A stretch of 62,850 nt of DNA, from NCBI GenBank assembly GCA_001801685.1, contig MGYJ01000052.1:1-62850 (forward strand), given 5' to 3'. Each line of letters starts with the position of its first letter. The stretch's first letter is position 1. The position numbers and the translations under genes are program-made. Below, one piece after another: positions 9,241 through 53,133 of this stretch. Source of the DNA: Gammaproteobacteria bacterium RIFCSPHIGHO2_12_FULL_63_22 (GTDB taxonomy: Bacteria > Pseudomonadota > Gammaproteobacteria > Xanthomonadales > Xanthomonadaceae). The notes beneath the pieces are model-generated. The model saw nothing but the letters and a program-made list of their open reading frames with translations, was not told the DNA's origin and searched no databases.

Positions 9241-11615
9241 TTACAGGGTGATGCCTTGGTTGGCCACTGCCACTTTCAGCTTGTCCATTGCGGTCACGAA
9301 ATCGAAATCGTCCACCGCATTGGCAAACGAGTCGTAATCGATCCCGAGTGCGGTGCGCAGCAGTCCTTCATTGTTGGCAACAAGCTGACCACTCGCGAAG
9401 TCGTCATGCTCAAAGTGATTGACCAGCTGGCGGCAGAGTTCGCTCAGGGAGTTCGCATTGCCACCCGTTGACGTGGGCGCCGTCTCCCCGGCAGGAATGC
9501 GTTTGCCCAATGCTTGGATCAGCATCACGAGATGATCGCCTGCTTCGCGCAGCAGTGGGCCCAAGGTTTGGGCGGGAGCACGTTGCTCGATGGCATGCTC
9601 GAGGAGCTGGGCCAGATCGCGCATACGCAGGGCACCTACCTGCGCAGATACGCCCTTGAGCGTGTGCGCCAGCCGTTTGGCAGTGTCCGTGTCGGAGTGG
9701 TCCAGTGCCTCATTCATGCGCGACAGCCAGTCTCGCTCTCCCTGCACAAATTTATGCAGTAGCGAAAGATAGAGTTTTTCACGGCCCATAGCCAGGTGCA
9801 GGCCGAGACGGGGATCGAATCCATCGATGCCGTCAAGGAATGTCAGCCCAGGGGACTGTTCCCTGGGTGCGCTGGTCTGGTTAGAGTTTTCTGCCGGGGA
9901 TCGCCTATATGGAGCGATCCATTGCAGCAGCTTGGCGGCCAGAACCTCCGGGTCAATCGGCTTGGTCATGTGGTCGTTCATGCCGGCCTCTAGGCAACGT
10001 TCACGGTCTCCCGTGAGCGCATTGGCCGTCATCGAGATGATGGGCAGGCGATCCTTTCCATGCAGCTGGCGAATTTCGCGTGTGGCAGCCAGGCCGTCGA
10101 GCACAGGCATCTGCATGTCCATCAGGACCGCGTCATATCGGCCGGACTGCACCTTGTCCACAGCAATGCGCCCGTTGGAGGCCACTTCCACTTCCAAGCC
10201 CAGATCGTGCAGGAATTCCGCGGCAACTTCCTGGTTGAGTTCGTTGTCCTCGACGAGCAGAACGCGAGCCCCCAGGATCACTGCCATCTCCGGTGCTGTC
10301 TGCTGAGCTTTCGCCCTGACGCCTGCCATGTGCTCCTGGCGCGTTGCAGCCAAGGCGTGCATGATGGTGTCAAACAACAGCGAAGGGTTGAGTGGTTTGG
10401 TCAGAATATCCTCAATACCTGCCTGCTCCGCGGACTTGTGGACTTCTTCCCGGCCGTGGGCTGTGATCATGATCATGTGTGGCAGCCTGGCCAGGGGTAG
10501 CTTGCGGATCTCGCGGGCGGTGGCGATTCCGTCCATGCCTGGCATCTGCCAGTCGAGGAACACGATTTCATAGGATTCATGCGCTGCCGAGGCACGCTGG
10601 ATCTCGGTCAATGCCGCCTTGCCTGAAGCCGCCAGCCCGACAGCGAAGGTCATGCTGCGCAGCATGTCTGCGATGACTTCTCGGGCAGAACTGTTGTCAT
10701 CCACGACCAGAACGCGTCGGCCACGCAGATCGGGATCGGGTACCAGGCTTCGTACTTCTTCCTCGCCCTTGCCCAGGCGCGCGGTGAACCAGAAGGTCGA
10801 GCCTTGACCCGGTTGACTTTCCACGCCGACGGTGCCCCCCATCATCTCTGCCAGGTGCTTGGCAATCGCCAGCCCCAGACCGGTGCCACCAAAACGGCGC
10901 GTGGTAGAGCTGTCGGCCTGCTGGAAACTCTGGAACAGGTGCTGCAGATGTTCCTCGGCGATGCCCGGCCCCGTGTCCTGGACCGAGAAATGCAGATCCA
11001 GCTCATGGTCGGTTTCCGAGGCCACCCGGACATGAAGCGCGATTTCGCCCCGGTCGGTGAATTTCACGGCATTGCTGGCGTAATTGATGAGCACCTGTCC
11101 GATGCGCAGGGGATCGCCAATCAGGTGGTTCGGAACATGGGGGGCTACATCCACGATCAATTCCAGGCCCTTGGCGGTGGCGCGATCGGCGATCAGGTTG
11201 ACGACGTTATCGAGCACCTTGTCGAGTTCAAAGTCGATGTGTTCGGTCGCCATCTTGCCCGCCTCGATCTTGGAAAAATCGAGGATGTCGTTGATGATGC
11301 CCAGCAGGTGCTTGCTGGCGTCCTGTATCTTGGTCAGGTACTGGCGCTGCCGTGTCGTCAGATCGGTCTTCAGGACCAGATGCGTCATGCCCATCACGGC
11401 GTTCATGGGCGTACGGATCTCATGGCTCATGTTGGCCAGGAAATCGGACTTGGTTCGTGCGGCTTCCTCAGCCAGTTCCTGGGCCTTGCGTATGGCTTGA
11501 ACGGCGGCGCGCTCTGTGGTGATGTCCTCAATGATGGCGACGACACCCTTGGACAACTGCATGGGATCAACGGCGCGCCCCGACATGCGCACCCAGAAGC
11601 GTGAGCCATCCTTGC
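9241..11615 (-). pseudogene. 3' part of prophage-split hybrid histidine kinase (HisKA-HATPase-REC-REC-HPt)
   Basis: This is the C-terminal fragment of the interrupted kinase. It holds the end of a PAS domain ([15 protein letters not shown]), a HisKA H-box ([18 protein letters not shown]), the catalytic ATPase domain, two receiver domains ([22 protein letters not shown]) and an HPt domain ([12 protein letters not shown]). That is the full set for a BarA-type phosphorelay. An open frame continues into prophage DNA to 11838, but those about 75 residues are phage sequence read by chance. Joined to 50250-53133 with one CCTTGC copy removed, the frame is restored as 1,751 codons. A soluble kinase fragment might still be made from an internal start. 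Confidence 0.93.
11610..11615 (+). repeat. Left copy of 6-bp target duplication (CCTTGC)
   Basis: CCTTGC directly precedes the prophage left terminus TGAATGAGAG. It matches the hexamer after the right terminus at 50250-50255. Confidence 0.9.
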
Positions 11616-11647
11616 TGAATGAGAGTGAGATAAAGAAAGAGAGAGTG

Positions 11648-11729
11648 GCGCGATAAATGGGATTTTCTGGCCCGGCACCGGGATGATGTGGCACAGAACT
11701 ATGCAAATCACTTTCCCTGCGCGAAACAT
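11648..11729 (+). promoter_or_regulatory. Left-end transposase binding sites (candidate)
   Basis: GCGCGATAAATG at 11648-11659 recurs inverted at the right end (50229-50240). A weaker relative, GCGCGAAACAT, is at 11719-11729. Sites of this kind near both termini are expected for MuA-like transposases. Confidence 0.6.
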
Positions 11730-11740
11730 CGAATCGAGAG

Positions 11741-11770
11741 AAAAAAGGCGCCAATTCGGCGCCTTTTTGT
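11741..11770. terminator. Bidirectional terminator at the end of the left late operon
   Basis: AAAAAGGCGCC / GGCGCCTTTTT forms an 11-bp stem around AATTC (about 11742-11767). It lies just after the virion morphogenesis gene on the minus strand, and the A and T tracts allow termination in both directions. It would also shield host sequence from late phage transcription. Confidence 0.8.
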
Positions 11771-11834
11771 TTTGCCCGGCAGACCGAGCATATGGCGGCG
11801 ATGATACCGCCGTACACAGGGCGCCATTGTCCCG

Positions 11835-12365
11835 TCACAGGTCTAGCAGAAGATCGTTGATGGCATCGACGATGATGGTGCTCTCTTCGGGATACAGGGA
11901 GCCATCCTGGCGCACCGGCAGGTACGGGCGCGCAGGAATTTCCACCTTCAGGCCCCGGCCTGCCTTACCGCCGAACTGGTGGATGGCTGCGTACTTTGGC
12001 CCAACCCCTACCGTGACCTGGTTGGCCGTGGCCTGCGCGACGATCTGGCGCCGCAGATCGCCCGATTCCCCGATCAGCGGCTTATTGCCCGCCAGGCGGC
12101 GCTCACCCGCTGCGTTGAGGTCGCCGCCCTTCTTACGGTAGGACTTGCCCAAGCGGGCGGAAAGAATGCCCAAGGTGGCAGGTGCGTTCGGCGTCCACTT
12201 TTCGCCATCGGGTCCGGTGCTGGTTTCAAAACGGCGCTTGGTGCGCTCCACGATGCCATCGCCGACGGCTTGCAGTGCAGGCTGCAGGTTTTTGGTGCGC
12301 TCGGCCATGCGCTGCAGAAGGGCCTGGACGGCCTGGTCTTGGACGGCAATGGTGAAGGTAGTCAT
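11835..12365 (-). CDS. Phage virion morphogenesis protein (Mu gpG-like)
   Basis: A 176-residue protein read from ATG 12365 ([14 protein letters not shown]). It has the family's basic middle region ([14 protein letters not shown]) and C-terminal [23 protein letters not shown]. Mu gpG and relatives act in head completion or head-tail joining. It is the last gene of the leftward late operon and follows the gpF gene, as in Mu. The longer open frame up to 12452 overlaps the tRNA-like element and is not needed. Confidence 0.85.
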
Positions 12366-12375
12366 AATTCGACCT

Positions 12376-12451
12376 GAGGCGGTTGTTTCCAATGGGAATG
12401 GTTGGGGGCTGCAAAGTCGCCATGATCCGGTTCGAATCCGGCGCCGCCTCA
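12376..12451 (+). tRNA. tRNA-like element (Cys-GCA-like, probably degenerate)
   Basis: The 76-nt stretch has a 7-bp acceptor stem GAGGCGG / CCGCCTC (12376-12382 with 12444-12450) and a textbook T-arm CCGGTTCGAATCCGG (12427-12441). A weak D-arm is possible at 12386-12399, and a TGCAAA run would place anticodon GCA. The anticodon stem is imperfect and the D/anticodon spacing irregular, and CCA is not encoded. It exactly fills the gap between the gpF stop and the gpG start, on the opposite strand. It could be a decayed phage tRNA or a tRNA-mimicking RNA. Confidence 0.42.
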
Positions 12452-13702
12452 CTTCTTGATGGTCAGCGGCATGTATTGACTGCCGTTCATGTCACCAGCG
12501 CCAATCACTCCCCCCGTCTGCACAAAGTTCGACACCAGGTGCGCGCGCACGCCGTCGAAGCGGCCTTTCATGTTGCGATTGACACGCACCACCAGCTTGC
12601 CCCAACGCTCGCCCAGTTCCACCGCGTAGATCAGTGCCTGGTCGTTCGTGTCCAGGTAGGGCTCGGCGACCTCCAGCAGGCGCGGCAGGTCGCGCCACAC
12701 CTCCAGTGGCAGTGCTGCGCCGCGTTCCGTCTTGGTGTCCCGGATCGCATGCAGCAGCTCGGTGTCGCGCATCCACACGCCAGCGTTCTCCAGCGTCACG
12801 CCGCGCTCAGCCATCGCTTGCACCGTCTCCGGCGCCACGGTATGCACTTGTGCCGTAGTGCCGCCCGCGCGCATGGCGCGAGCCGTGTCATCGACCAGGG
12901 CCTGCCACTGCTGCAGGCGCTCGGCCGCAAGCACCGGGCGCAGCTCCCGCCACATGGCCGCACCGATGGGCGCATCGAGGGCGAGCAACTTGTCGTCGAT
13001 GAACCGCTGCAGGGGCCAGTCGGCTGACGCGCCTGGCGCGTGGTCGAAGCCCTTGCCAATGCCGACCGGTGCGCCGGTCTTGGGGTCGATCTTGTCCCAC
13101 CCCTCGGGCGGCTCGCCCAGGCCGGCCCGCGCACTGGCCTCACCTTCGCGTCTGCTCACAGCCACGATGCGGCATTCGCACCCTATACCGTTGGGTGCGA
13201 AGTGCGTCTTGAAGAACGGATGATCGTGGTGCAGCGTAAGACCATGCCAGGCCAGGTGGTGCTCGCGCGGGTGCATCACCGTGTCGCTGTGCAAATAGCG
13301 CCAGAAAGGGCGCAGCCGCACATAGCCGGGCTCCAGCATCTGCTGGCGGCGCCCGGCTGCGTAGGAGGTGGCCATGTTCGTTTTGTAAATGACACGCGTC
13401 CGCCACGCCTCGCCTTCGGCCGTTCCTTCTCCGGTCCAGCCGGTCCATCCATGCTTGGCGACGATGGCTTTGAAGTCCCGCCGGAATGCCTCCAGGCCCA
13501 GACCATCGGTGGCGCGCTGCACCATGGCCGCTTGCAGATCAGCCACCAAATCGGCCTTGGCAGCTCCGGCGACCACGAATGCACGATCATGCGCGGCAGC
13601 GGCGATCTGCCCCCAGCGCTCGGTAGGCAAGGCCAGCTTGGCGCGCAGATAGGCGATCTGCGCGTCAAACGGCGTATTGAAGCCAAACGCAGCTTCAGGC
13701 AT
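12449..13702 (-). CDS. Phage head morphogenesis protein (Mu gpF-like minor head protein)
   Basis: A 417-residue protein from ATG 13702 (MPEAAFGFNTPF). It shows the Phage_Mu_F pattern, including RTRVIYKTNMATSYAAGRRQQ, WRYLHSDTVMHPREHH and the Cys-containing FFKTHFAPNGIGCECRI. The family has minor head roles at the portal/capsid junction. It overlaps the portal gene end by 8 bp, which supports this start over the longer open frame. The C-terminal part resembles a phage-barnase-EndoU-ColicinE5-like extension only loosely; I do not assign it. Confidence 0.88.
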   Translation of the reverse strand: MPEAAFGFNTPFDAQIAYLRAKLALPTERWGQIAAAAHDRAFVVAGAAKADLVADLQAAMVQRATDGLGLEAFRRDFKAIVAKHGWTGWTGEGTAEGEAWRTRVIYKTNMATSYAAGRRQQMLEPGYVRLRPFWRYLHSDTVMHPREHHLAWHGLTLHHDHPFFKTHFAPNGIGCECRIVAVSRREGEASARAGLGEPPEGWDKIDPKTGAPVGIGKGFDHAPGASADWPLQRFIDDKLLALDAPIGAAMWRELRPVLAAERLQQWQALVDDTARAMRAGGTTAQVHTVAPETVQAMAERGVTLENAGVWMRDTELLHAIRDTKTERGAALPLEVWRDLPRLLEVAEPYLDTNDQALIYAVELGERWGKLVVRVNRNMKGRFDGVRAHLVSNFVQTGGVIGAGDMNGSQYMPLTIKK

Positions 13703-15230
13703 CTGCGGCCTCGGCGCGGGCAGTGTCCATGCCCTTGAGTTCAGCCAGGGCAAAAGCGGCGGCCAGCAGGCGCGTGAGATCGGCGGTGTCGAGCGCGCCG
13801 TACTGTTTCAGGATCGCGGCGCGAACACCGTCCGCGCCTCCGGCCTGGCCGACGATGGTCTGCAGATCGTCCACCACACGCTGCCACTCTGGGGCGGCAG
13901 CGCGCTCCAGGGCGTCAGTCACTGCCGCGATGGGATCGGGCGCGCTGCCCTCGGCAAAGCTGGCGGGCCGGTCTTTGACAGCAGGGATGACGGCACCGAC
14001 GGCGGGGGTAAGCAGCGCTGGCGGGGTAGCTGCCTGGCGCTTGCGCCAGCCCTCGCCATACTTCGACCGCACCGTGTCTTCATCCAGCTCATAACCCATG
14101 TCGTAGATGATCTTGTCCGTCTCGGCCAGTGCCTTGGTGTCGTCTTCCTCCTTGATCTGACGATAGACGTGGCAGGGCTCAAAGCCGTTGAACTCACAAA
14201 TCCAGGCGATCAGGGTTTCATTGAGGGTCTCCGACAGCAGGTCGCTATCGGCCTGCGTCAAGTCTTGGCGCACATCCTGGCGTTCCTTGCTGGCTGCGGC
14301 CAGCGCGCCGCCCCCCGACCGGGCAGGTTCCTGGCCGGTAAGCACCTCGGCGATCCACTCGTCCATGTACTCGCACAGCTGCTGCTGTGTCGTCACATTG
14401 CCCGACAGCTTGGACTCCAGCAGCGCAATCTCCATGCCCTCGGGGGTCGCCAGATACCCATCGTTGCTCATCGCCCGCAGTGCCGCCACAAGGGTGCTCT
14501 TTTCCTGGTGACTGGCGTTGCGCGGGTATTTGCCATGCGGCGTGGGCGAGCCGAAGCGGTCACACAGCTTGTTCCAGGCCACGATACCCTTGCGCTTGAA
14601 GAACACCGGCCAGAACAGCTGCAATCCCAGCCCGGTGCCATAGGGGTTGTCATCCTCAGGGTTCACGCGGTGGGCGATGAATTTGCGCTCAGGCACCGCA
14701 ACGCCCTTGAGCATCGCCTCGCGGGTCAGCAGCTGCAGGCGCGGCGGGCTGTTCTCGTCGTCCTGCACATACACAAAGCGCCGCTGCGCCCGCTTCGGGG
14801 CCCGCAGCGGCACCACCAGGCCATCGCGGATGCCCCACACCACCTCGGCAATCGAATGCCCCGCCAGCAGCGCCTCCAGCAACTCGCTGCACAGCTTGTC
14901 GAACGAAAAGCCTTTCAGGATCTCGGTGACCTTGAGCGCGTCCTGCGTGGCCTTGGCGTGGTTCTTGGCGCGCGGCTCCACCTGCCACGGCTTGCCGATC
15001 AGCGCAAGCTGGCGCTTCTGCAGGCCGCCGAACACCTTGCCGTCCCGCCGCAGATCGCGGTACAGCTCCACACCGCCATTGCCACGCTCCAGCAGCAACG
15101 GATCATTGGTCCGCAGCACACCCATGTAGGCAACCTCGAACGGATCGCGCAAGCGGTTGGCAAACTCGGTGTGCAGCTCGGGCGCTGGCACGGCGGGCAC
15201 TGTGGCGCTGGGCAATTGCTTTTTAGCCAT
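13695..15230 (-). CDS. Phage portal protein (DUF935, Mu gp29-like)
   Basis: A 511-residue protein (start ATG 15230, MAKKQLPSATVPAV) of the DUF935 family that forms the portal of Mu-like phages, the ring through which DNA enters and leaves the head. Recognisable features include the N-terminal NRLRDPFEVAYMGVLRTNDP, FSFDKLCSELLEALLAGHS and NRLTPAR-type C-terminal helices. It lies between terminase and gpF, overlapping both, which is the canonical Mu order. Confidence 0.9.
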   Translation of the reverse strand: MAKKQLPSATVPAVPAPELHTEFANRLRDPFEVAYMGVLRTNDPLLLERGNGGVELYRDLRRDGKVFGGLQKRQLALIGKPWQVEPRAKNHAKATQDALKVTEILKGFSFDKLCSELLEALLAGHSIAEVVWGIRDGLVVPLRAPKRAQRRFVYVQDDENSPPRLQLLTREAMLKGVAVPERKFIAHRVNPEDDNPYGTGLGLQLFWPVFFKRKGIVAWNKLCDRFGSPTPHGKYPRNASHQEKSTLVAALRAMSNDGYLATPEGMEIALLESKLSGNVTTQQQLCEYMDEWIAEVLTGQEPARSGGGALAAASKERQDVRQDLTQADSDLLSETLNETLIAWICEFNGFEPCHVYRQIKEEDDTKALAETDKIIYDMGYELDEDTVRSKYGEGWRKRQAATPPALLTPAVGAVIPAVKDRPASFAEGSAPDPIAAVTDALERAAAPEWQRVVDDLQTIVGQAGGADGVRAAILKQYGALDTADLTRLLAAAFALAELKGMDTARAEAADA

Positions 15231-16647
15231 GGATGAAATCTCCCAACGGGGCACTGCTCTCGCGCGGGCCGCCGCTCATGAATTCGATCGGGGCAGCGGG
15301 ATTGCTGCCAGCGTGCAGAGCCAGTGCCAGCGCCCAAAACCGATCCGCGTGGCCGTTGACTGCACTGCTGTCATCGCCATCGGCCACGAAGCGAATGTTC
15401 CCAGCCGTGGTGGTGGTCTTTTGCACCTTGCGCAAGTCGGCGCGGATCTTGGCGTCCTCAGGAATCCGCACCTTGCGGTCTTCCATGGCGCCCTTGAGGG
15501 GGTAGGCAAGTGCCTCCTTGACCGGGCCTGTGAAGTTGACGGCCTCCACGCGGTGCTCGCCAAACTTGTCCTGGGCGTCATCGGCCCAGCCGATGCCCAG
15601 GCCAGTCGAGTCGATGCAAATGCGGTCGCAGATCTCGAACCAAGGCCACAACACGGCCTCCTGGGCGCTCTTGCGCATCTTCTCCATGACCTCAACGTGA
15701 CGTGTGTAGAACACATCGCCCAGCTGCTCGACCACCCAGAGCACGGTCAGATCCTTCTTGCGGCCGATGTCCACGCCTGCGAACAGACGGCCTTGGAACG
15801 GGCCTTCCAGGCCGCGCTGCCACATGGTGCCGCCCGAGTACTCGCAGGCCGTGATCAGGTTGTATTCCAGGAACTTGGCATCGTCGTCGGCCGGGATGCA
15901 CATGTATTCCTGGTCGAACGACTCCTCGTCGGCCGCGCCCGCCTTGACGAAGTCGAAATACTGCGCTTCGTCCATGGCCTGCTGCTCGGCGTCAAAGGGC
16001 AGGGCCTGCTGCAGCTTGAACAAGAAGCCTTGCTCTAGCGCATCCTGCAGGGTGACCCGGTGCAGACTGATCTTCTTGGGGTTACCGCCAAAGCGAGCCT
16101 CTCGCACCAGGTGGTTGAAAAAGCTGTGCGAGCCGCGATGCGTGCTGATGAGCTCCATGTTGCCGCCCCAGGTGATGCCAGGGTAGGCAATGGCCCACAT
16201 CTTGCGTTGCTCACGGTGCAGGGCAAATTCGTCCAGGACGCGGCTGCCCCGCTTGCCCGCCTGGGCGTCGGGGTTGCTGCTCATGCTGTGGATGCGCCGA
16301 CCGCTGGCGAACTGCAGCACGTAGGCGCTCAGCTTTTTCTCCTGGTCCAGCACCACCTCGCCGAGGTCATTGGCTGCCATGCCCATGATTCCGGCCCACA
16401 GCTTGCAGTCTTCGATGAACAAGCGTGCCTGGATGTCGTCTCGGCTGCTCACCCACTCGTCAAAGCGTGCTCCTTGCGCAGCGGCCCGTTCATCGGCACC
16501 GTAGGCGGTAGACCAGCTGATGCCGATCTGCCGTGACTTCTCCATGAGCTTGAGGCGAGATTCATCCTTGATCCAGCGACTCTGGAACGGCAGAAAAATC
16601 GCGTCGCGATCCTTCGGAATGCACTTGGCGCGGCCCTTGATTTTCAT
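15223..16647 (-). CDS. Phage terminase large subunit (Mu gp28-like)
   Basis: The 474-residue packaging motor has a Walker-A-like segment near residues 38-46 (SRQIGISWS) and Walker B SRVLDEFALH, followed by a nuclease domain. Acidic residues are in FAGVDIGRKKDLTVLW and RICIDSTGLGIGWADD. It cuts and translocates phage DNA into procapsids; Mu-type enzymes package host-flanked copies headful-wise. Its start overlaps the small-subunit-like gene by ATGA (16644-16647). Confidence 0.93.
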   Translation of the reverse strand: MKIKGRAKCIPKDRDAIFLPFQSRWIKDESRLKLMEKSRQIGISWSTAYGADERAAAQGARFDEWVSSRDDIQARLFIEDCKLWAGIMGMAANDLGEVVLDQEKKLSAYVLQFASGRRIHSMSSNPDAQAGKRGSRVLDEFALHREQRKMWAIAYPGITWGGNMELISTHRGSHSFFNHLVREARFGGNPKKISLHRVTLQDALEQGFLFKLQQALPFDAEQQAMDEAQYFDFVKAGAADEESFDQEYMCIPADDDAKFLEYNLITACEYSGGTMWQRGLEGPFQGRLFAGVDIGRKKDLTVLWVVEQLGDVFYTRHVEVMEKMRKSAQEAVLWPWFEICDRICIDSTGLGIGWADDAQDKFGEHRVEAVNFTGPVKEALAYPLKGAMEDRKVRIPEDAKIRADLRKVQKTTTTAGNIRFVADGDDSSAVNGHADRFWALALALHAGSNPAAPIEFMSGGPRESSAPLGDFIHG

Positions 16648-17195
16648 GACGGGTCGATCCCCAGCGTCTTGCGGATCTCGGCCTTCGTCGCAGCCGTCAC
16701 GCCGCCCTTGTTGGGCATGGCTTCCAGTTTGGCGCGCTGCTCTGCCAACATTGCCTGGCGCTCCTCCTGGCGCACCTGGCGCATCTTCAGCTCGATATCG
16801 ATATTCCCGCGCTTGGCGCCACTCAAGTCCTTCAAGGCACGCGCCATCACACGCACCTCCTCAGGCGACTTCACGCCCTCCGACTCGGCCATGTTATCCA
16901 GCGTGCGGTGTGCCACCGCCTCCAGCATCTGCGGCAACAGGCGCCCCACATCGCCATCGGGCTCCTTGCCAAACTGCTCCACCCACACACGCGCCATGGT
17001 CTGCGCCTTGACCATCTGGCGCATGCTCTCGCGCTCGCCCTTCACGTAGCGCGCCGTTGCCGAGCGCGAAACCTCCGCGCCCAACGCATGCAGCACTTCA
17101 GTGATCTCGTCAATGGTGCGGCCCTTGCGGATCAGGTCATGCACCTCCTGCAGGATGGCCGCATCCTGCTGGGCCACCGTGGACTTGCGGCCCAT
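16644..17195 (-). CDS. DUF3486 protein (Mu gp27-like, terminase small-subunit candidate)
   Basis: A 183-residue helical protein beginning MGRKSTVAQQDAA. It has an N-terminal helix-turn-helix-like section (IDEITEVLHALGAEVSRSATARYV) and a long charged C-terminal region. DUF3486 occurs directly before the Mu-type terminase large subunit and is generally taken to be the small subunit, though function is inferred from position. It is coupled to the large-subunit gene and lies 3 bp after gp26. Confidence 0.88.
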   Translation of the reverse strand: MGRKSTVAQQDAAILQEVHDLIRKGRTIDEITEVLHALGAEVSRSATARYVKGERESMRQMVKAQTMARVWVEQFGKEPDGDVGRLLPQMLEAVAHRTLDNMAESEGVKSPEEVRVMARALKDLSGAKRGNIDIELKMRQVRQEERQAMLAEQRAKLEAMPNKGGVTAATKAEIRKTLGIDPS

Positions 17196-17198
17196 GGC

Positions 17199-17504
17199 TC
17201 AGCCCGCCCTCGGGCGCTTCACACCCGGCACCGTGGCACGGCCACGCGCCGCATCCTCGCCGCGCGCCAGCAGCCTGGCAATGCGCACACCCGCCACATC
17301 GTCCACGCTGATCAGCCCTTGCTCATGGAGCCAGGCCAAATCGGTATGGATGCGGTCGGTAGACACCACATGCCCCAGGCGCTCCACCATCGAATGCAGC
17401 AAGAACTCATTGGCCGTGTAGGCCGCGCTCTCCAACAGCACACGCAATATCACCAGGCGCCGGTCTTCGGCCAAGTGGGCAGCAAAATCATTGGAAGTGG
17501 TCAT
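17199..17504 (-). CDS. Mu gp26-like phage protein (winged-helix-like)
   Basis: A 101-residue protein with the pattern RRLVILRVLLESAAYTANE followed by HVVSTDRIHTDLAWLHEQG and basic C-terminus, similar to the small ArsR-like/VpaChn25_0724-type proteins before DUF3486 in Mu-like phages. A DNA-binding role fits the fold but is not shown. It sits tightly between gp25-like and gp27-like genes. Confidence 0.78.
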   Translation of the reverse strand: MTTSNDFAAHLAEDRRLVILRVLLESAAYTANEFLLHSMVERLGHVVSTDRIHTDLAWLHEQGLISVDDVAGVRIARLLARGEDAARGRATVPGVKRPRAG

Positions 17505-17507
17505 GGC

Positions 17508-17849
17508 TTACTTCTTCAGCAGAAAGTCTTCAATCCGGTTCTGCGAAATGCGCACCGTCGTAATGTCCCGCTGGATGGCCTCTTGCGTGGCCTGCATCGC
17601 CTGCATATCGCCCTGCAGCTCCGACATCTGCTGCGGCGTCGGCATGTACTGAATCTTGGTTTCCAGCCGGTCCGTGCGGCTGTGCAGCAAAGCCATCTGC
17701 TTGGACATGCCTTCCTCCACCGCCTTGATGTGCACGGTGTTGTCCTTGTCGCGCGTAGCAATCCAGGTGTAAATTGCCGAGGCAATGGGCAGCACCACCA
17801 CGGCAATGATCTGCAGCCACAGGCCGATCGTTTGAGAATCAATATTCAT
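17508..17849 (-). CDS. DUF2730 protein (Mu gp25-like)
   Basis: A 113-residue protein from ATG 17849 (MNIDSQTIGLW). It has one N-terminal membrane helix (about 7-28) and a long coiled coil (about 38-110), ending in DFLLKK. DUF2730 members sit in the Mu late region between lysis genes and terminase; their function is unknown. The start overlaps the zinc-finger gene end by 11 bp. An upstream in-frame ATG at 17876 is less likely. Confidence 0.8.
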   Translation of the reverse strand: MNIDSQTIGLWLQIIAVVVLPIASAIYTWIATRDKDNTVHIKAVEEGMSKQMALLHSRTDRLETKIQYMPTPQQMSELQGDMQAMQATQEAIQRDITTVRISQNRIEDFLLKK

Positions 17850-18093
17850 ATCGTCCTTTTGCCCCTTGGGCTCCATGTGCCCTTTCGCTGCGCGCCTGGC
17901 ACACCACACACAACTGGCACCCCGGCACTGCGCGGCGGCGCGCCGCTGGAATGACACCATCACAATCGGCGCAGCACTCGGCTGAGTCGGCTACCGTCTT
18001 CCCTGCCAGGCCCGCGCGGCGGGCTTGATTGCGCAGGGCGTCCTGCAGCATCTCGGCCTCACGCGCCTGGGCGCGGTCGATGTCATCTACCAC
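17839..18093 (-). CDS. TraR/DksA-type C4 zinc-finger protein
   Basis: An 84-residue protein whose CADCDG...CQLCVVCQ cluster forms a four-cysteine zinc finger of the TraR/DksA family. The N-terminal helix MVDDIDRAQAREAEM carries the acidic tip typical of the group. TraR-like phage proteins bind in the RNA polymerase secondary channel and mimic DksA/ppGpp. This copy may adjust transcription during late growth. It overlaps Rz1 at its start and DUF2730 at its end. Confidence 0.87.
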   Translation of the reverse strand: MVDDIDRAQAREAEMLQDALRNQARRAGLAGKTVADSAECCADCDGVIPAARRRAVPGCQLCVVCQARSERAHGAQGAKGRYEY

Positions 18094-18355
18094 CCGCGTC
18101 CTCCGTGTCGAGCCAGTTCAAGAGGTCTGTCATGCGGCCGGCGCACTGGCCGTACAGGTCGTACATGGACTTGAGTTCAAGGGCGACCGGGTCCACCTGC
18201 TGCCCCCTCGGTGCCGGCGGAGGCGCCGGGCAGCGCACCGCGTATTCCGCTGGCACCGGCTTGGGCGGCGCGGTCACGGGCGGCTTCGAGGCTGCGCATG
18301 ACGCCAGAAGGAAACACGCAGTCAGCGCGATCAGAAGCCGTGGTGGTGAGGGCAT
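18083..18355 (-). CDS. Rz1-like outer-membrane spanin lipoprotein
   Basis: A 90-residue lipoprotein with signal and lipobox LLASC (cysteine about residue 18) followed by a Pro-rich segment (KPPVTAPPKPVPAEYAVRCPAPPPAPRG). This is the hallmark of Rz1. Its start lies inside the Rz gene in another frame. After holin and transglycosylase action, Rz and Rz1 fuse inner and outer membranes for the last lysis step. The longer frame upstream of 18355 is only the Rz shadow. Confidence 0.85.
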   Translation of the reverse strand: MPSPPRLLIALTACFLLASCAASKPPVTAPPKPVPAEYAVRCPAPPPAPRGQQVDPVALELKSMYDLYGQCAGRMTDLLNWLDTEDAGGR

Positions 18356-18614
18356 CGGCCATCTCCGTGGTAGTTTGGGTGTTGGCCTTTTCGAGCTGGG
18401 CCATGGCGGTGCGCATGCTGCGGCTGGCCGCGCCGGAGCGCTTGACCAGGTCGGCATGCGCCGAGAGCTGTTCGTTGACCGCTTCGAGCGCCTTGGAATC
18501 CTGGCGGCCTTTCTCCAAGGCCTTGCCCTGGTCCAGGCCGTAGCCATAGCCGCCGACTCCGGCGGTGATGGCGAGCAGCAGGCCGGCAACAGCCACGGTG
18601 GCGGCATTGCTCAT
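18177..18614 (-). CDS. Rz-like inner-membrane spanin
   Basis: The 145-residue protein starts MSNAATVAVAGLLLA. It has one N-terminal membrane helix (about 5-25) and a long periplasmic helical/coiled region rich in Glu, Lys, Ala and Gln. It follows the transglycosylase gene with ATGA overlap (18611-18614), and the Rz1 gene overlaps its 3' half in another frame (18177-18355). Together they form the two-component spanin. Confidence 0.85.
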   Translation of the reverse strand: MSNAATVAVAGLLLAITAGVGGYGYGLDQGKALEKGRQDSKALEAVNEQLSAHADLVKRSGAASRSMRTAMAQLEKANTQTTTEMADALTTTASDRADCVFPSGVMRSLEAARDRAAQAGASGIRGALPGASAGTEGAAGGPGRP

Positions 18615-19587: not shown

Positions 19588-19606
19588 GCACGGCACTTTG
19601 CCGTGC
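19588..19606 (-). promoter_or_regulatory. Hairpin over the holin start codon region
   Basis: GCACGGCA / TGCCGTGC (19588-19595 with 19599-19606) pair perfectly around a 3-nt loop, ending one base before the holin ATG and enclosing the alternative GTG start. No Shine-Dalgarno outside the stem is visible. Confidence 0.6.
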
Positions 19607-19625
19607 GCGCGCGAGCTTCAGTAAA

Positions 19626-19640
19626 TGGAGCGCGCCATTG
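19626..19640 (+). promoter_or_regulatory. Shared late-region element, left copy
   Basis: TGGAGCGCGCCATTG matches TGGCGCGCGCCATTG at 33894-33908 in 14 of 15 bases. It is near-palindromic and lies between the leftward lysis operon and the rightward gene at 19667. It is a candidate activator/operator site for late expression. Confidence 0.5.
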
Positions 19641-19666
19641 TTTGCAGCAGGCAGCAAAGGCGCACC

Positions 19667-37367: not shown

Positions 37368-37377
37368 GGGAGCCGCC

Positions 37378-45839: not shown

Positions 45840-45840
45840 G

Positions 45841-46731
45841 ATGCAATACGTCTGGCCCATTGCCCTGACCGACGCCGAGATCGTCTCGCTGCCCGAGGCG
45901 GAAACCCAGCCGCTGTACGCCGCTGGCACGACCTACGCGTTTGATGCCATGGTGCGCCACCAGCACCAGCTCTACAAGAGCCTGCAGGCCGGGAACCTGG
46001 GCCATACGCCTGGTGCTGTCGGCTCCACGGAATGGTGGCTCCCGCAAGGCCCGACGAATGGCTATGCGCTGCTCGACGGCAAACTGTCGACCGCCACAGT
46101 GCGCGTGGGCGGCATCACCCTGGTCGCCGAGCCCGCCAGCGGCGTCACGGGCCTGGTGCTGCTGCGCTGCGCGGGCGCCACGGCCGTGCATGTGACCGTG
46201 ACGCTGGGCGCGATCACGCTCTACGACCTCAGCTTCGACATGCTCGACAGCGGCGAGATCGGCGACTGGTGGGATTACTACTACGGGGAATGGAACGAGC
46301 GCTCGGAGCTGGTGCTGACCGATCTGCCCGGCATTCCTGGCGCGCGCATCACCGTGAACGTGCAGGGCAGCGGCAGCGTGTCGCTGGGCATGCTGGTGCT
46401 GGGCCAGGTGGTGGACCTGGGCGAGGCGCAGTGGTCTCCCGAGATCGGCGCCGACGACTTCTCGCGCGTGGACGCCGACCCGCTGGGGGAGACCGAAATC
46501 ACCAAGCGCGGCTACGCCAAGACCTTCAGCGTGACCTGCGAAGCGCCCCTCGCGCAGCTCGACCGCATCGCCCGCGCCCTCACGCGGGTGCTGTCGGTGC
46601 CCGTGGTCTGGATTGCCGCAGGCGGGCGTTTCGACGCCCTCATCGTCTACGGCCTCGGGTCGTGGCGGCTGCGCCCCGCGAACGCAAAGAAGCTCTACGG
46701 ACAGCTCGACATCAAAGGATTCAAACAATGA
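45841..46731 (+). CDS. Distal tail/baseplate protein
   Basis: A 296-residue protein starting MQYVWPIALTDAEIVSLPEA. An N-terminal section (YAFDAMVRHQHQLYKSLQAG, then NLGHTP and TEWWLP) resembles small carbohydrate-binding modules of phage tails. The rest is beta-rich, with GEIGDWWDYYYGEW and ERSELVLTDLPGIPGARI. It lies 1 bp after the tape measure gene, where distal tail proteins are encoded. Exact family not recognised. Confidence 0.68.
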   Translation: MQYVWPIALTDAEIVSLPEAETQPLYAAGTTYAFDAMVRHQHQLYKSLQAGNLGHTPGAVGSTEWWLPQGPTNGYALLDGKLSTATVRVGGITLVAEPASGVTGLVLLRCAGATAVHVTVTLGAITLYDLSFDMLDSGEIGDWWDYYYGEWNERSELVLTDLPGIPGARITVNVQGSGSVSLGMLVLGQVVDLGEAQWSPEIGADDFSRVDADPLGETEITKRGYAKTFSVTCEAPLAQLDRIARALTRVLSVPVVWIAAGGRFDALIVYGLGSWRLRPANAKKLYGQLDIKGFKQ

Positions 46732-47618
46732 GCTACACCATCACCCTGCGCCCCGTGGCGCCCGACATTCCCGATCCGTTGGACCGGGCCACCTTCCGGC
46801 AGCGTGCCTTCCCCTGGAACCAGTGGCAGAAGGCCGACAGCATCGCGGCCAACACCCAGATCACGCAGATCGCGGGCATGGCCGACGATGCCGCCTACGC
46901 CGCAACGCTGGCGACCACGGCCAAGGGCCAGGCCGAGACGGCCGCCAGCGCGGCCAGCGCCCAGGCCGCCACTGCTGCAGGGCATGCCGCCAGCGCCCAG
47001 GCCAATGCGGATGCGTTGGCAGGCGCCACGGTGAACCTGGCCATCCCTTCGATGGAGGATGTGGCCGACCCGCAGGGCGACCTGCAGGGATCACCCAGTT
47101 ACACCTTGCCCGCCAGCGCCGATGGCGCCATGCGCGTGCTGGAGCGCCTGGGGCTGTTCGTCTACCGCGCAGCGGCCACGGACCCGGCTGATGGTGAGAC
47201 CTGCATCGCTCCATCGACCGGTGTAGGCCGCTGGCTGCTGCAGCTGCCCTCGTTCGAGTTCGTGATGGGTCGCCTGGCCGGGGTGGAGCTGGCCTGGCTC
47301 GATGGCCGCCTGCGCACGGCCGAGGCGCAACTTGCCAGCGCCAACATGCGCGCACTGCATGCCTCGGCATCGCTGGACTTCCCGAGCATTGCGGCCACCA
47401 CCGGCACGGCCACGCTGACGGTTTCCGTGCCAGGTGCATCGGCGGGGGACCGTGTCGCTCTCGCGCCGCCTGCGGTGCTTCCTGCCGGGCTGATTCCGAT
47501 GGCTGCCGTCACGGCGGCCGACACCGTGAGCCTGACCCTCTTGAACCACACGGCGGCCGCCATTGACCCGGCCGCTATGACCTGGGGCGTGACCGTCCTC
47601 AAAGCCAACTGGAGCTGA
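46728..47618 (+). CDS. Tail fibre-like protein with Ala-rich coiled section
   Basis: A 296-residue protein with a globular N-terminus (PVAPDIPDPLDRATFRQRAF), an Ala/Gln heptad-like segment (about 55-100) suited to a trimeric stalk, and a beta-rich C-terminus. ATGA overlap with the gene before. It probably links baseplate and receptor-binding protein; assignment is by position and composition. Confidence 0.68.
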   Translation: MSYTITLRPVAPDIPDPLDRATFRQRAFPWNQWQKADSIAANTQITQIAGMADDAAYAATLATTAKGQAETAASAASAQAATAAGHAASAQANADALAGATVNLAIPSMEDVADPQGDLQGSPSYTLPASADGAMRVLERLGLFVYRAAATDPADGETCIAPSTGVGRWLLQLPSFEFVMGRLAGVELAWLDGRLRTAEAQLASANMRALHASASLDFPSIAATTGTATLTVSVPGASAGDRVALAPPAVLPAGLIPMAAVTAADTVSLTLLNHTAAAIDPAAMTWGVTVLKANWS

Positions 47619-47621
47619 CCC

Positions 47622-48623
47622 ATGTACATCAAGGCTGATCGCATTCTTTCGGGCATCACGGGCGGGGCCATCAACAGCGCCCAACTGCAGGCGCTGCTGG
47701 CCGACCCCGGCTACCTCGGGGCGTTTCGCTCGGGCATTCTCTACAGCCCGCCCCGGCGTGACGTGCTGCTCGCTTCGCCCCAGGCGGCTGCGGTGGTGGC
47801 GGGCTCTGCCCTGGCCGTGGCTGAACTGCTGGGTAAAAGCTCGCTACTCACGGCGGTGCTGGCCGACAGCAGTTGGTTCGCCGCGCTGGTGTGCAGCCCC
47901 ACTGCCGTACCGTTGGTCTATGCCAGCGCGACCGGCATCGCTACTCTCTTTGGCGCCGACCGCAAGGCGGTGTTTGCACCGCACGCCGCACAGATGACCC
48001 TCAGCGGGTCGGAGGTGACCGCCTGGCGCGACTATGTCGGTGCCACTCAGCTATGGGGTGGTGCCGCAGGCGCGCGGCCGACGTTCGACGGACCGGCCCC
48101 CAATGGCTTTACATCGGTGGCGTTTGATGGGGTCAACGACGCTCTGAGTGCTGGCCCATCCGGGCTATTTGCAGCGGCAGCAACAACATTCTATGTGGTG
48201 GTGCGGCCGACGACGATGACGTCCGACCGTGTCTGGATCGCTGAAGGCGGCGCAGGGGGCGGGTACATCGGCTCCAGCGGAACCGGAGGCGTTTTGCAGG
48301 CGTATTCCGGTGGCACTTATAACTTTGCTGCCCCGCATGTGCCCACCGCGAACACCTGGCAGCTTTACCGACTGCGCAAGGACAGCGGCAGCTTGTACAT
48401 CAAGCGCAACAGCTCGGCGGAGGTGTCGGCTGGAGCGATGACTTTCAACGCTGGGGCGCAACCACTGATTGTGGGTCACCGTCTCAACGGAAGTTCGGTG
48501 CCTGAGCGCTTCTTTGCGGGCCAGATCGCCGAGATCGTCAACCTGGGCAAGTCAGCGGGCGATGCGGACGCCGACAACATCCGCATCACAGAGCTGCTGC
48601 GCAGCAAGTACGCCCTCTGGTAA
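47622..48623 (+). CDS. Receptor-binding tail protein with LamG/concanavalin-like domain
   Basis: A 333-residue protein. The first 110 residues are helical and Ala-rich; the C-terminal 210 residues form a jelly-roll pattern (SVAFDGVNDALSAG ... TTFYVVVRPTTMTSDRVWIA ... GQIAEIVNLGKSAGDADADN), as in LamG/concanavalin lectin-like folds of phage spikes. It is the likely host-recognition protein. Its position near the end of the tail operon fits. Confidence 0.72.
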   Translation: MYIKADRILSGITGGAINSAQLQALLADPGYLGAFRSGILYSPPRRDVLLASPQAAAVVAGSALAVAELLGKSSLLTAVLADSSWFAALVCSPTAVPLVYASATGIATLFGADRKAVFAPHAAQMTLSGSEVTAWRDYVGATQLWGGAAGARPTFDGPAPNGFTSVAFDGVNDALSAGPSGLFAAAATTFYVVVRPTTMTSDRVWIAEGGAGGGYIGSSGTGGVLQAYSGGTYNFAAPHVPTANTWQLYRLRKDSGSLYIKRNSSAEVSAGAMTFNAGAQPLIVGHRLNGSSVPERFFAGQIAEIVNLGKSAGDADADNIRITELLRSKYALW

Positions 48624-48633
48624 GGAGCACGCC

Positions 48634-49056
48634 GTGAACATGAACTTCGACGTGTACCAGGGCGAGACCCTGATCTATTCGACCGACGCACCTGCGCACC
48701 AGGTGGCGTTGCGCGAGGGTGAGGGCGTGGCCGAGCATGGCAGCGCTGCGATCCTTTCGCCCGAGGCCTGGGCCGCGCTGCAGGCGGCGAGCCAGGCCCA
48801 GGCCGATGCGCCAAAGTCCGCCACCCGCGCTCAGGGCAAGGCCGCACTGATCCAGGCGGGCTACTGGCAGGGCGTGCTGGCGTTCGTGGCCTCCATTGGG
48901 GATGAGACCCAACGGGCACTGGCTGAGGTGGCGTTGCATGACACCCAGGAGTGGCAGCGCAGCAGCCCGTTCTTGAATGCCGCCGCTGCGGGCCTGGGCA
49001 TCACCGACGAGCAGCTCGATGCGCTGTTTGTCGCTGCGAGGGAGATACAGCTTTAA
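48634..49056 (+). CDS. Small tail fibre-associated protein
   Basis: A 140-residue protein from GTG 48634 with AAGGAG six bases upstream. It has a beta-rich start (FDVYQGETLIYSTDAPAHQVALREG) and a helical C-terminus (GKAALIQAGYWQGVLAFVAS; LGITDEQLDALFVAAREIQL). Such proteins may be fibre assembly factors. ATG 48640 is the alternative start, with poorer spacing. Function not certain. Confidence 0.66.
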   Translation: MNMNFDVYQGETLIYSTDAPAHQVALREGEGVAEHGSAAILSPEAWAALQAASQAQADAPKSATRAQGKAALIQAGYWQGVLAFVASIGDETQRALAEVALHDTQEWQRSSPFLNAAAAGLGITDEQLDALFVAAREIQL

Positions 49057-49203
49057 AGAAAAAAGACGGGCGACCCCTGCCGGTGCGCGAACACCGGCAA
49101 CAGCCCCAACCTGCAGATCAAACCTGCAAGCCGGCAAGGCCCGCCACCCTGTACAGAGTGCGGCGAGTCTATCGGAAGTTTCACCCATGGAAACAGGCTT
49201 GCA

Positions 49204-49410
49204 ATGGAAGAAATCAGATGTGGCGCATGCCGCCGTAAGTTGGCCGAGGGCATCTACATCGCCCTCACTATCAAGTGCCCCCGCTGCGGGGCCATCAATT
49301 CATTGAGGGCCGCGAGCCCCCCACTAGAGCGCCAGGGAGCGTCGGTAAATGGACTACACCATGACGACGCCCATCATTCCCTGGATCGGCGGCAAGCGCC
49401 GCCTCGTTGA
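49204..49410 (+). CDS. com: Com-like zinc-finger translational regulator
   Basis: A 68-residue protein: MEEIRCGACRRKLAEGIYIA then TIKCPRCGAINSLRA, a four-cysteine zinc ribbon exactly as in Mu Com. Mu Com opens an mRNA stem-loop to allow translation of the overlapping mom gene. Here the overlapping gene (from 49349) is an adenine methylase. The C-terminal tail is encoded by the overlap. An in-frame Cys-rich stretch lies upstream without a usual start codon. Confidence 0.87.
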   Translation: MEEIRCGACRRKLAEGIYIALTIKCPRCGAINSLRAASPPLERQGASVNGLHHDDAHHSLDRRQAPPR

Positions 49411-50152
49411 CCTGCTGCTGAGCAGGTTTCCCCCTCATAGCTGCTACGTCGAGGTGTTCGCAGGTGGCGCTGCCGTGTTCTTCGCCCGGCATCCTGCCGA
49501 CGTCGAGGTGCTGAACGACGTCAACGGCGACCTGGTCAACCTCTACCGGGTGGTGACCCACCACCTGGAAGAGTTCGTCCGCCAGTTCAAATGGGCGCTC
49601 ACCAGCCGCCAGGTGTTCAAGTGGCTGCAGGAAACCCGGCCGGAAACGCTCACCGACGTGCAGCGTGCGGCCCGCTTCTTCTACCTCCAGCAGCAGAGCT
49701 TCGGCGGCAAGGTGGCCGGGCAGACCTTCGGCACCGCCACCACGGCGCCAGCGATCAACCTCCTGCGGATCGAGGAGAACCTGTCGGCCGCGCACCTGCG
49801 CCTGGCGTCGGGCACCTACATCGAGAACCTCGATTGGGCGGCTTGCATCGACCGCTACGACCGGCCGCACACGCTGTTCTACCTCGACCCCCCTTATTGG
49901 GAGACGGAAGGCTATGGGGTGCCGTTCCCCTGGGAGCAGTACGTGGCCATGGCAGCAAAGCTCAAGGCCATCAATGGCAAAGCAGTGGTGAGCATCAATG
50001 ACCACCCGGCGATCAGGGAGTGCTTCGCGGGGTTCGATATGGAGGCGCTGAAGCTGGACTACACCGTTGGCGGCGGAGCGAAGCGGGTAGAGCGTGGGGA
50101 ACTGGTGATCTACAGCTGGGACCGCCAGGCCGAGCCTGCGGGGTTGTTCTAA
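49349..50152 (+). CDS. Dam-type DNA N6-adenine methyltransferase (D12 class)
   Basis: A 267-residue enzyme with the SAM-binding motif IPWIGGKRRLVDLLL, YVEVFAGGAAVFF and the catalytic DPPYWET motif (about 190). D12-class enzymes methylate adenine N6, often in GATC; specificity is not deducible. It stands where mom lies in Mu and overlaps com by 62 bp, so it is probably under Com translational control and protects phage DNA from host restriction. ATG 49361 is an alternative start. Confidence 0.9.
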   Translation: MDYTMTTPIIPWIGGKRRLVDLLLSRFPPHSCYVEVFAGGAAVFFARHPADVEVLNDVNGDLVNLYRVVTHHLEEFVRQFKWALTSRQVFKWLQETRPETLTDVQRAARFFYLQQQSFGGKVAGQTFGTATTAPAINLLRIEENLSAAHLRLASGTYIENLDWAACIDRYDRPHTLFYLDPPYWETEGYGVPFPWEQYVAMAAKLKAINGKAVVSINDHPAIRECFAGFDMEALKLDYTVGGGAKRVERGELVIYSWDRQAEPAGLF

Positions 50153-50205
50153 TCGTGTTGTCTGTAGTGCAATTTCGTTTCACCAGAGACAATTCACGCA
50201 TCAAC

Positions 50206-50240
50206 CATTTATCGCAACGCTGCAGGCGCATTTATCGCGC
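50206..50240 (-). promoter_or_regulatory. Right-end transposase binding sites (candidate)
   Basis: CATTTATCGC occurs at 50206-50215 and, as CATTTATCGCGC, at 50229-50240. These are inverted copies of the GCGCGATAAATG site at the left end. They lie within 45 bp of the prophage right terminus. Confidence 0.6.
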
Positions 50241-50249
50241 CGCGCTTCA

Positions 50250-50255
50250 CCTTGC
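50250..50255 (+). repeat. Right copy of 6-bp target duplication (CCTTGC)
   Basis: It follows the prophage right terminus GCGCTTCA (ending 50249) and equals 11610-11615. Confidence 0.9.
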
Positions 50256-53133
50256 GTACCATTTCCAGTTCGCGGTGATCGGTATCACCCTGCCTGACGG
50301 CGGCGTAGCCTTCGTTGCCCACCAGCGCATAGGATTCTTCATCGGGGTACCAGATGCGTGCCGACTGGCCGATCTGCTCACCATAGGCGTAGCCCAGAAG
50401 CTCATCCATGCGGTGGTTGCAACGCACGATGCGGCGGTCCTTGATGAGCACGATGCCAGCGCCTGCAGAGTCGAACAGGGCATTCTGTTCCTGGATGGCG
50501 GCTGTCAGTTCGGTCGTGCGCTGCACCACCTGCTGCTCCAGGCTGTTCCGGTAGGCATCGAGTTCGTCGCTCATCCGTTTCTTTTCGGTCACGTCCTCCT
50601 TGATTGCCAGGTAGTGCGTAACCTTGCCGTCGGCCTGTCGGACCGGCGCGATGATGGCGTGCTCCACGTACTCACTGCCATTCTTGCGCGTGTTGTAGAG
50701 GTCGCCGCGCCAGGGCTTCCCCTGGGTCAGCGTGGCCCACATGTCCTGGTATGTGGCCAAGGGGGTTTTCCCCGACTGCAGCAAGCGGGGGTTGGCGCCA
50801 ATGGCTTCATCCCATGTGTATCCGGTGTTCTGGATGAACGCCTGGTTCACATACTCGATGTTTGCGTCGAGGTTGGTGATGACAATGCTCTCTGGGCTCT
50901 GGTCCACGGCCAGGGAGAGTTTCCGCAGTCGATCTTCGATTCGGCGCTGCTCCGTGACGTTTTCCTTGACGGCGACATACTGGCAGACCTTGCCATCCTC
51001 GCCGCGAATCGGCGCGATGGTGGTGGCATGGATCTGTTCGCTGCCATCCTTGGCACGGTTGATCAATTCACCCGTCCAGGTCTTGCCGGCAGTCAGGGCG
51101 TGCCACATGGCGTCATAGGTGGTGGCAGGGGTTTTACCGGACTTGAGCATCCGGGGATTGCGGCCCAGGATTTCTTCACGGCTGTAGCCGGTGATGCGGC
51201 TGAAGGCATCATTGACATAGATCGTATCGGCCGCCAGGTTGGTGATGAGCACGGTGTTGGGGCTCTGTTCGACAGCGAGAGACAGCATGCGGATACGCGT
51301 CGCCGCATCCTTTTCAGCAGTGATGTCACGCCAGGCGCTGACAAAGTAATCGCGCCCTTTTTGCCTGATGACATGCACATTCAGATGCACGTCGATGAGG
51401 CTGCCATCCTTGCACCGATGCAGGTTGTCGAGTTCCGCTCGTCCGGAGGTTGCGAGATCATGCGCGAAGATGGTCAGTTCTTCTGGAGAGAGCTGTCCCT
51501 GGATATCCGTAACGCGCATGGTCAGCATTTCGTCACGGCTATAGCCGAGCATGTGGCAGCTGGCATCATTGGCTTCTACGAATCGCAATGTTTCTGCATC
51601 GACCAGTTCGATGGCCAGTGGTGCCTTGTCGAGGATCGCCAAGCGCAAGGCCCGGCTGTCGGCTTCGGTTGCCAGACTCTCGCCGCGCTTAACCGATGCT
51701 TCGATGCGTGCTGCGATGGCCTCCAGCATGGAGCGTTCCTCGGCGAGGAAGGGCTGGCCGGCATCGTTGGGCAGCGGCTTGGCATAGATGACGCAGATCG
51801 TGGCGGCCTCGCTGTTGCGACCGGTGAATTCTGCGCACAGATGTAGCCCATCAGCACGTTCGCCAAAGTGCCTGCTGCCACATGTGATTGCGGCGACGGC
51901 AAGATCGGGAAAGCGCATTGCGGCGGGTAGGCGCGCAACAATCGCTCCAAGCAGCGTGTCAATATCGAGATCGTTGCGTTCGCACAGGCTCGATACGTCA
52001 TAGAGGCAGGCGAGTTCTTTGATTCGTTCATCGAGCAAGTACTTGGCGGCTCGCAGTTGATCTGTCTGTTGTTGGAGCAATTCTTCTGCTTGCTGGCGCG
52101 CATCCACCATGGCATTGAAAGTGGTTGCCAGGGTGGTAATTTCACGCAGTCCTGTCACGTTCGCCCGAACGGAGAAATTGCCGACCTGGATGGCTTGGGC
52201 CGTGCGGCTGAGCGCGTTGAGTGGGCGTGTGATGCGTTGTGCAACGCGCGCAACAATGGCCAATAAAACGATCAGCAAGCCAACGGAAAACGAAATGATG
52301 CGCATGGCATCGTGCAGCGCGGCAGTGTGAATGCCCTCTGACGGGATGGCGACGAAGGCCAGCAGTCCGAATTCCGGCAGCGATTTGACGGCGTAATCAC
52401 GCCGGATGCCATCGGTTGCTGTCGCTTCGAACATGCCGTTGCGGACCTGCAGCACACGCTTGGAAGCCTCGTCCTGCAGATGGCTGCCTATTTCGTCGGC
52501 ATTCATGTTGCGCCAGATCAGGGCGCCGTCATCGTTCATGAAGCCATAGAGAGAGCCCTGCGGGAGATGCTCTGTGGGAAACATGGGGTCGAAGGCGGTG
52601 ATGCCGATGGTGACGGCGATCGAGCCGAGCATGCGGCCTTCTGGAAGATCACTTGCGCGCAAGGGCTGGCTGACGATGAGCACCTGCTTGCCGACAATCG
52701 GTCCGAAAAATGGCTCCCCGACGCTGAAACGTTGTTCTTTCAGCAGGTGCTGAAACCAGGGCCTGGTCGCTGCACTGGGCGGCTTGCCTGGTGCAAAGGG
52801 CAACGCCGAGCAGATCAGGGCTCCGGATAGATCGGTGGTCACAATGTTGGCGTATTCCTGATGCATCGCCAGCAGATGCTTGAGTCCCGGATCGCAATGT
52901 TCCGGGTCCAGCAGAGCCGACGTTGACAGCGAGGCCAGGTAGTCAAGTCGGTGGCGGAGGTTGCCAAGCTGGGTGCGGACGTTGGTTGCCAGTATTTCGG
53001 ACTCGATCTTGAGGAGGGTGTGGGCATCCTTTTTTGTATGCTCGAAATTCTGCTGGATGCTGTACGCCAGCAAGGCTGTCAGCGGCAGTACCACGGCCGC
53101 AACAATGAGGATGAGGTAGCTGCGAATCCTCAT
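50250..53133 (-). pseudogene. 5' part of prophage-split hybrid histidine kinase (CACHE-HAMP-GAF-PASx4)
   Basis: This is the N-terminal fragment of the same gene: TM1 (about 5-24), a periplasmic dCACHE-like sensor, TM2 (about 285-305), HAMP (QRITRPLNALSRTAQAIQVG), a GAF-like domain, then PAS domains (SPNTVLITNLAADTIYVNDA; SPESIVITNLDANIEYVNQA; SAGAGIVLIKDRRIVRCNHR). The frame runs 13 codons into phage DNA and stops at 50209. The junction RELEMVRK here joins DGSRFW at 11609. Without its kinase core this product cannot autophosphorylate. It overlaps the HD-GYP gene by ATGA. Confidence 0.93.

What the first reader, a model, noticed from the sequence alone, without database searches (positions are those of the whole stretch)
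9241..53133. Mu-like prophage precisely splits a 1,750-residue hybrid kinase
Seen directly: CCTTGC flanks TG...CA termini (11616 and 50249). Removing the prophage and one hexamer joins RELEMVRK to DGSRFW in frame, giving exactly 5,253 nt (1,751 codons) for a CACHE-HAMP-GAF-PASx4-HisKA-REC-REC-HPt protein. The lysogen therefore lacks a phosphorelay kinase whose gene is coupled to an HD-GYP c-di-GMP phosphodiesterase. Integration may change biofilm or motility, and excision is expected to restore the gene rarely if at all.
Basis: partly seen in the sequence, partly recalled or inferred. Interest (0 to 1): 0.7.

Follow-up and report, generated by a model that had tools for sequence, protein, structure and literature searches.

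The report
Jumping prophage splits a sensor kinase
A transposing bacterial virus of the B3 type has landed inside a large sensor-kinase gene and cut it in two, which is ordinary for such viruses, although this virus carries its gene blocks in an unusual order.

Summary
CCTTGC (11610-11615, 50250-50255) flanks a 38,634-bp prophage (11616-50249) beginning TG and ending CA. Leaving out the prophage and one hexamer gives one open frame of 5,253 nt, 1,750 residues plus stop. Two Burkholderiales records hold the gene unbroken, aligned without gap across the break and preceded by a REC-HD-GYP gene. L015 aligns from residue 1; L016 only from residue 284.

The hexamer is a true target duplication. The ends carry GCGATAAATG-type sites and resemble those of Pseudomonas phage B3. 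Both IMG/VR relatives with both ends readable have 6-bp duplications. B3 makes 6-bp and Mu 5-bp duplications (PMC8705779, passages), so "Mu-like" should read "B3-type".

Loss of the full-length kinase is well supported; effects on c-di-GMP, biofilm or motility are untested. Such insertion mutations are ordinary for B3-like phages (PMC4777764). By-products: an arm layout absent from 32 of 32 compared phage records (25 phages), and an IMG/VR record that counts the kinase's front part as viral.

The parts
50250..53133 (-). 5' part of the split hybrid kinase: dCache, HAMP, PAS repeats (codons 1-961); the frame reads 41 nt on into the phage and stops at 50209
9241..11615 (-). 3' part of the split kinase: end of the fourth PAS region, HisKA, HATPase_c, REC, REC, Hpt; the frame is open further into the phage, to a GTG at 11838
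11610..11615 (.). left copy of the 6-bp target duplication CCTTGC
50250..50255 (.). right copy of the 6-bp target duplication CCTTGC
11616..50249 (.). B3-type transposable prophage, 38,634 bp, TG...CA ends
11616..11662 (+). left end with sites at offsets 11 (GAGATAAAGA) and 34 (GCGATAAATG)
50206..50249 (-). right end with GCGATAAATG sites at offsets 11 and 34
11742..11768 (-). hairpin with a T run, probable terminator between the leftward phage operon and the kinase 3' part
   Evidence: -19.9 kcal/mol, z -2.75, 1 of 200 shuffles folds as well; not listed by the simple scan
11835..19596 (-). leftward arm: neck, F-like head protein, portal, TerL, TerS, phrog_436 protein, spanin, endolysin, holin
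22293..22889 (-). CI-type repressor helix-turn-helix protein
22983..32531 (+). early arm: regulators, transposase A (25267-27093), transposition ATPase B (27062-28126), recombination-associated exonuclease (31066-32025)
33893..50152 (+). head protease, major head protein, scaffold, head-tail adaptor, tape measure (40011-45839), downstream ORFs, DNA methyltransferase (49349-50152)
53130..54392 (-). REC-HD-GYP protein (HHEKWDGSGYP), overlaps the kinase start by 4 bp; uncut and upstream of the insertion

Best explanation
A B3-type transposable phage (DDE transposase A with ATPase B) integrated by transposition into the fourth PAS region of a membrane hybrid histidine kinase. Staggered cuts 6 bp apart, filled in afterwards, left CCTTGC on both sides. 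The cell can still make the upstream REC-HD-GYP protein and perhaps a sensor fragment that ends 13 residues into the phage. The catalytic part (HisKA, HATPase, REC, REC, Hpt) is cut off from sensor and promoter and lies behind a probable phage terminator, so the full-length phosphorelay kinase is absent. Shown: the split, the ends, the duplication, an unbroken orthologue. Inferred: the mechanism of integration, loss of kinase function, any effect on the HD-GYP partner.
For: In-frame join without stop; unbroken orthologues aligned without gap across the break, L015 and, from residue 284, L016; REC-HD-GYP neighbour in both; transposase phrog_310 and ATPase phrog_296; transposase 41.3% identical over 97% to B3-group phage PM105; ends like those of B3; 6-bp duplications in both IMG/VR relatives that could be tested; B3 makes 6-bp and Mu 5-bp duplications (PMC8705779, passages); B3-like phages integrate at random sites and cause mutations (PMC4777764, whole text).
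Against: None of the 26 other genomes of the genus shows an orthologue (several of these genomes are incomplete), and in a sample of 395 family genomes only the window's own passes E<=1e-120, so there is no intact copy in a close relative. The comparison rests on one full and one partial orthologue at 54-65% identity, both with a longer PAS region. The 3' frame stays open about 220 nt into the phage, so expression of a soluble kinase fragment cannot be excluded. The terminator was seen by folding but not by the pattern scan.
Confidence: 0.93

Rival explanations
1. The two parts act as separate genes: the 3' part is expressed from the phage left end as a soluble hybrid kinase, so the insertion rewires rather than removes the relay.
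For: The kinase frame is open to a GTG at 11838 inside the phage, and the leftward phage operon points at it.
Against: A hairpin with a T run lies between them at 11742-11768; the simple scan found no minus-strand promoter-like site in 11400-12500.
Confidence: 0.05
2. The insertion is a reversible switch kept by selection, with the phage leaving precisely to restore the kinase.
For: Both parts are free of stops and frameshifts, so exact loss would leave an open frame.
Against: Intact parts are also expected after a recent insertion; among the 40 window ORFs scanned with PHROGs the only integration and excision families were transposition proteins (some short ORFs were not scanned); the relatives sit in other places, so the site is not a dedicated one.
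Confidence: 0.02

Closest known systems
Pseudomonas phage B3 and B3-group transposable siphophages
   Same: Transposase A and ATPase B, TG...CA ends with like sites, 6-bp duplication (PMC8705779), about 38-39 kb, two opposed arms around regulators, TerL 71% identical to B3
   Different: No megablast match in the phage collection for the first 24,885 of 38,634 bp (the rest was not tried); the block from early genes to neck gene is turned round between the ends, so the neck gene, not the early genes, lies next to the left end
Escherichia phage Mu
   Same: Transposing phage plan with an A/B transposition pair and TG...CA ends (recalled, and PMC8705779)
   Different: 6-bp instead of 5-bp duplication; no record named Mu among the organism counts of the 58 transposase hits (that Mu is in the collection was not checked)
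Leptospira transposable prophages (PMC8705779, passages read)
   Same: 6-bp duplications; TerS-TerL-portal block separated from other structural genes in some groups
   Different: Those carry a tail sheath and infect a distant host; the exact layout here was not compared with theirs

Membership tests
B3-type transposable phage | DDE transposase A with ATPase B | tested here: met
   phrog_310 E=2.6e-88, phrog_296 E=1.6e-54; 41.3% over 97% to PM105
B3-type transposable phage | TG...CA ends and 6-bp target duplication | tested here: met
   rule from PMC8705779
B3-type transposable phage | 36-39 kb genome | tested here: met
   38,634 bp
B3-type transposable phage | two arms transcribed apart from a regulatory centre | tested here: met
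Genus Beetrevirus (B3 itself) | early operon next to the left end, late genes on one strand | tested here: not met
   neck at the left end; TerL/portal minus, protease/major head protein plus; B3 annotation
B3-type transposable phage | flexible non-contractile tail | tested here: inconclusive
   tape measure found and no sheath among the ORFs scanned; ORFs 46032-47618 and 47622-48623 had no PHROG hit
B3-type transposable phage | particles with host DNA at the phage ends, replication by transposition | not testable with these tools
   needs induction and sequencing
Phage Mu | 5-bp target duplication | tested here: not met
   6 bp here and in two relatives
Hybrid histidine kinase with two REC and Hpt | HisKA, HATPase_c, two REC, Hpt behind a sensor in one unbroken gene | tested here: not met
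   all these domains are present, but the gene is split in this genome; unbroken in L015 and L016

The most novel reading that the evidence does not exclude
The prophage belongs to a lineage of B3-type phages in which the whole block from early genes through lysis and packaging to the neck gene is inverted between otherwise B3-like left and right ends, so that late genes are split between two opposed operons: a third arm layout beside those of Mu and B3.
Probability: 0.55. Interest if true: 0.35.

Novelty: new member of a known kind. Interest (0 to 1): 0.25.

Why it matters
It is a clean, base-exact case of a transposable phage removing a signalling gene, and it shows that a public virus record counts 2,884 bp of bacterial kinase as phage. 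The split-arm layout bears on how transposable phages time late transcription and which gene order their packaging requires.

Tried and rejected
Rejected: a 5-bp duplication with one chance base (the end sites, the B3 ends and two relatives fix TG/CA with 6 bp). Rejected: the two parts as ancestral separate genes (L015 and L016 are single frames; the other nine of the 11 loci are partial or other PAS-type matches and say nothing either way).

Led nowhere: megablast of part of the prophage in phages; megablast of the kinase 3' part in plasmids (3 records, short stretches); DNA search of the genus for the 5' part (four other genomes with short weak matches); a guess at the host genus in a paper search. 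A looser end motif in 26 long loci gave only single-site matches in L049, L053, L056 and L100, without the second site, and none was taken as an end; stricter two-site patterns gave nothing in 13 Burkholderiaceae-group loci and nothing in nine terminal stretches of IMG/VR records.

Literature: searches (no paper) gave listings with starts of abstracts. Read: PMC4777764 whole text; passages of PMC8705779, PMC5977238 and PMC4378225. In what I saw nothing described this insertion or this exact layout; Braid et al. 2004 on B3 was not read, and most subscription papers are not held.

Full report
Observation. The window reads GAGCCAT-CCTTGC-TGAATGAG at the left and GCGCTTCA-CCTTGC-GTACC at the right. 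The prophage is therefore 11616-50249, 38,634 bp. The flanks with one hexamer give 5,253 nt on the minus strand, 1,750 residues and one terminal stop. Pfam finds dCache (just under its cut-off), HAMP and PAS repeats in the 5' part, and HisKA, HATPase_c, two REC and Hpt in the 3' part. No GAF domain was reported. The histidine of the SHEIRTP motif (the phosphorylated one, by recall) is residue 1024, and the break is at codon 962.

Intact gene elsewhere. A scan of named genomes with the first 1,012 residues gave 11 loci. L015 (Burkholderiales bacterium RIFCSPLOWO2_12_FULL_65_40) is a full orthologue: one frame of 1,882 codons, aligned in two overlapping pieces covering residues 1-1749 at 62-65% identity. 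L016 (Burkholderiaceae bacterium RC261) is one frame of 1,804 codons, aligned only from residue 284 on (54-57%), and has no dCache or HAMP hit, so its sensor end differs. Both align without gap across the break, both have five PAS_9 stretches, and both are preceded by a REC-HD-GYP gene, as here (53130-54392, overlap 4 bp, motif HHEKWDGSGYP). The other nine loci are partial or other PAS-type matches. In the genus, 25 of 26 other genomes have some match at E<=0.001, but the best is 39% over 252 residues. In a sample of 395 family genomes only the window's own passes E<=1e-120. The gene is therefore rare, and I found no close sister with an empty site.

Phage type. PHROGs identify transposase A, ATPase B, lysis genes, both terminase subunits, portal, head protease, major head protein and tape measure among 40 ORFs scanned, and Pfam a CI-type repressor. 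The transposase matches 58 phage records, 51 of them of Pseudomonas phages; the 15 listed lie at 40.0-44.5% identity. The large terminase is 71% identical to that of B3. The ends of this prophage and of B3 are alike on both sides. PMC8705779 (passages) states that Mu makes 5-bp and B3 6-bp duplications and that TG-CA ends are usual. Of 13 IMG/VR records with a related transposase (one of them, L047, is this prophage) I fetched 20 terminal stretches, at least one per record. The left-end motif with both sites was found in five other records (G398, G399, G400, G403, G406) and the right-end motif in two (G399, G400); in seven other records no end was recognised. Both records with both ends have 6-bp duplications, GGCTGG and ATCTTG. 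In G400 the two flanks, read apart, carry LigD primase and DNA-ligase domains, so that phage too probably splits a gene. In G399 the left flank is FmdA/AmdA-like and the right flank had no Pfam hit. There is no sign of a preference for kinases, and PMC4777764 (whole text) says that B3-like phages integrate at random sites and cause mutations.

Working. Transposition into the fourth PAS region separates sensor and catalytic parts. The 5' frame ends 13 residues into the phage. The 3' part lies behind a hairpin with a T run at 11742-11768, which would stop the leftward phage operon; the simple scan did not list it. The REC-HD-GYP gene lies upstream and is uncut. Loss of the full-length kinase is a strong inference. 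What this does to c-di-GMP is open, because phosphotransfer from this kinase to the REC-HD-GYP protein is assumed only from the gene pair. Both parts are free of stops, which suggests a recent event. The transposition region occurs once in the genome.

Layout. In B3 the early genes face the left end and the late genes run to the right; PMC5977238 (passages) calls this an inversion of the early operon relative to Mu-like order. Here, with B3-like ends in place, the neck gene faces the left end, packaging and lysis genes run left, and early genes, protease, major head protein and tail genes run right. Of the loci that hold both TerL and protease, the prophage's own record L047 and the relatives L052, L053 and L056 show opposite strands; in G399 the neck gene and the protease are also opposed. 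Of records listed in both (60 of 62 records shown; 60 of 172 shown), 32 of 32 (25 distinct phages; 7 are RefSeq duplicates) have both genes on one strand. [quoted passage not shown]

Verdict. The phage should be called B3-type. The phenotype claim is untested. The insertion is ordinary behaviour for such a phage; the layout is the more unusual part.

Noticed in passing
window 11835-53133 (IMGVR_UViG_2710723518_000021, L047, L094): The IMG/VR record of this prophage lacks 219 bp of the true left end and includes 2,884 bp of the host kinase as viral sequence.
   Followed up: yes
window 11835-50152; L052, L053, L056: Lysis, packaging and neck genes lie on the strand opposite to protease, major head protein and tail genes, unlike B3 and 32 of 32 phage records listed in both searches.
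   Followed up: partly
window 46032-48623: Two ORFs (528 and 333 aa) after the tape measure have no PHROG hit; the second has a weak lectin-like Pfam match under its cut-off. The stretch is short compared with the tail region of B3, so the tail tip may be of another type.
   Followed up: no
genome G000: The genome is 4.26 Mb while the 26 other genomes of its genus are listed at 1.5-3.3 Mb (some incomplete), and among them only it holds this kinase.
   Followed up: no
L073, L074: The right-end DNA methyltransferase is 91% identical in two IMG/VR relatives (G407, G401), each match listed with one TAA inside.
   Followed up: no
window 20553-21734: An endonuclease-family ORF (phrog_4225) lies between the lysis genes and the repressor, on the minus strand.
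   Followed up: no
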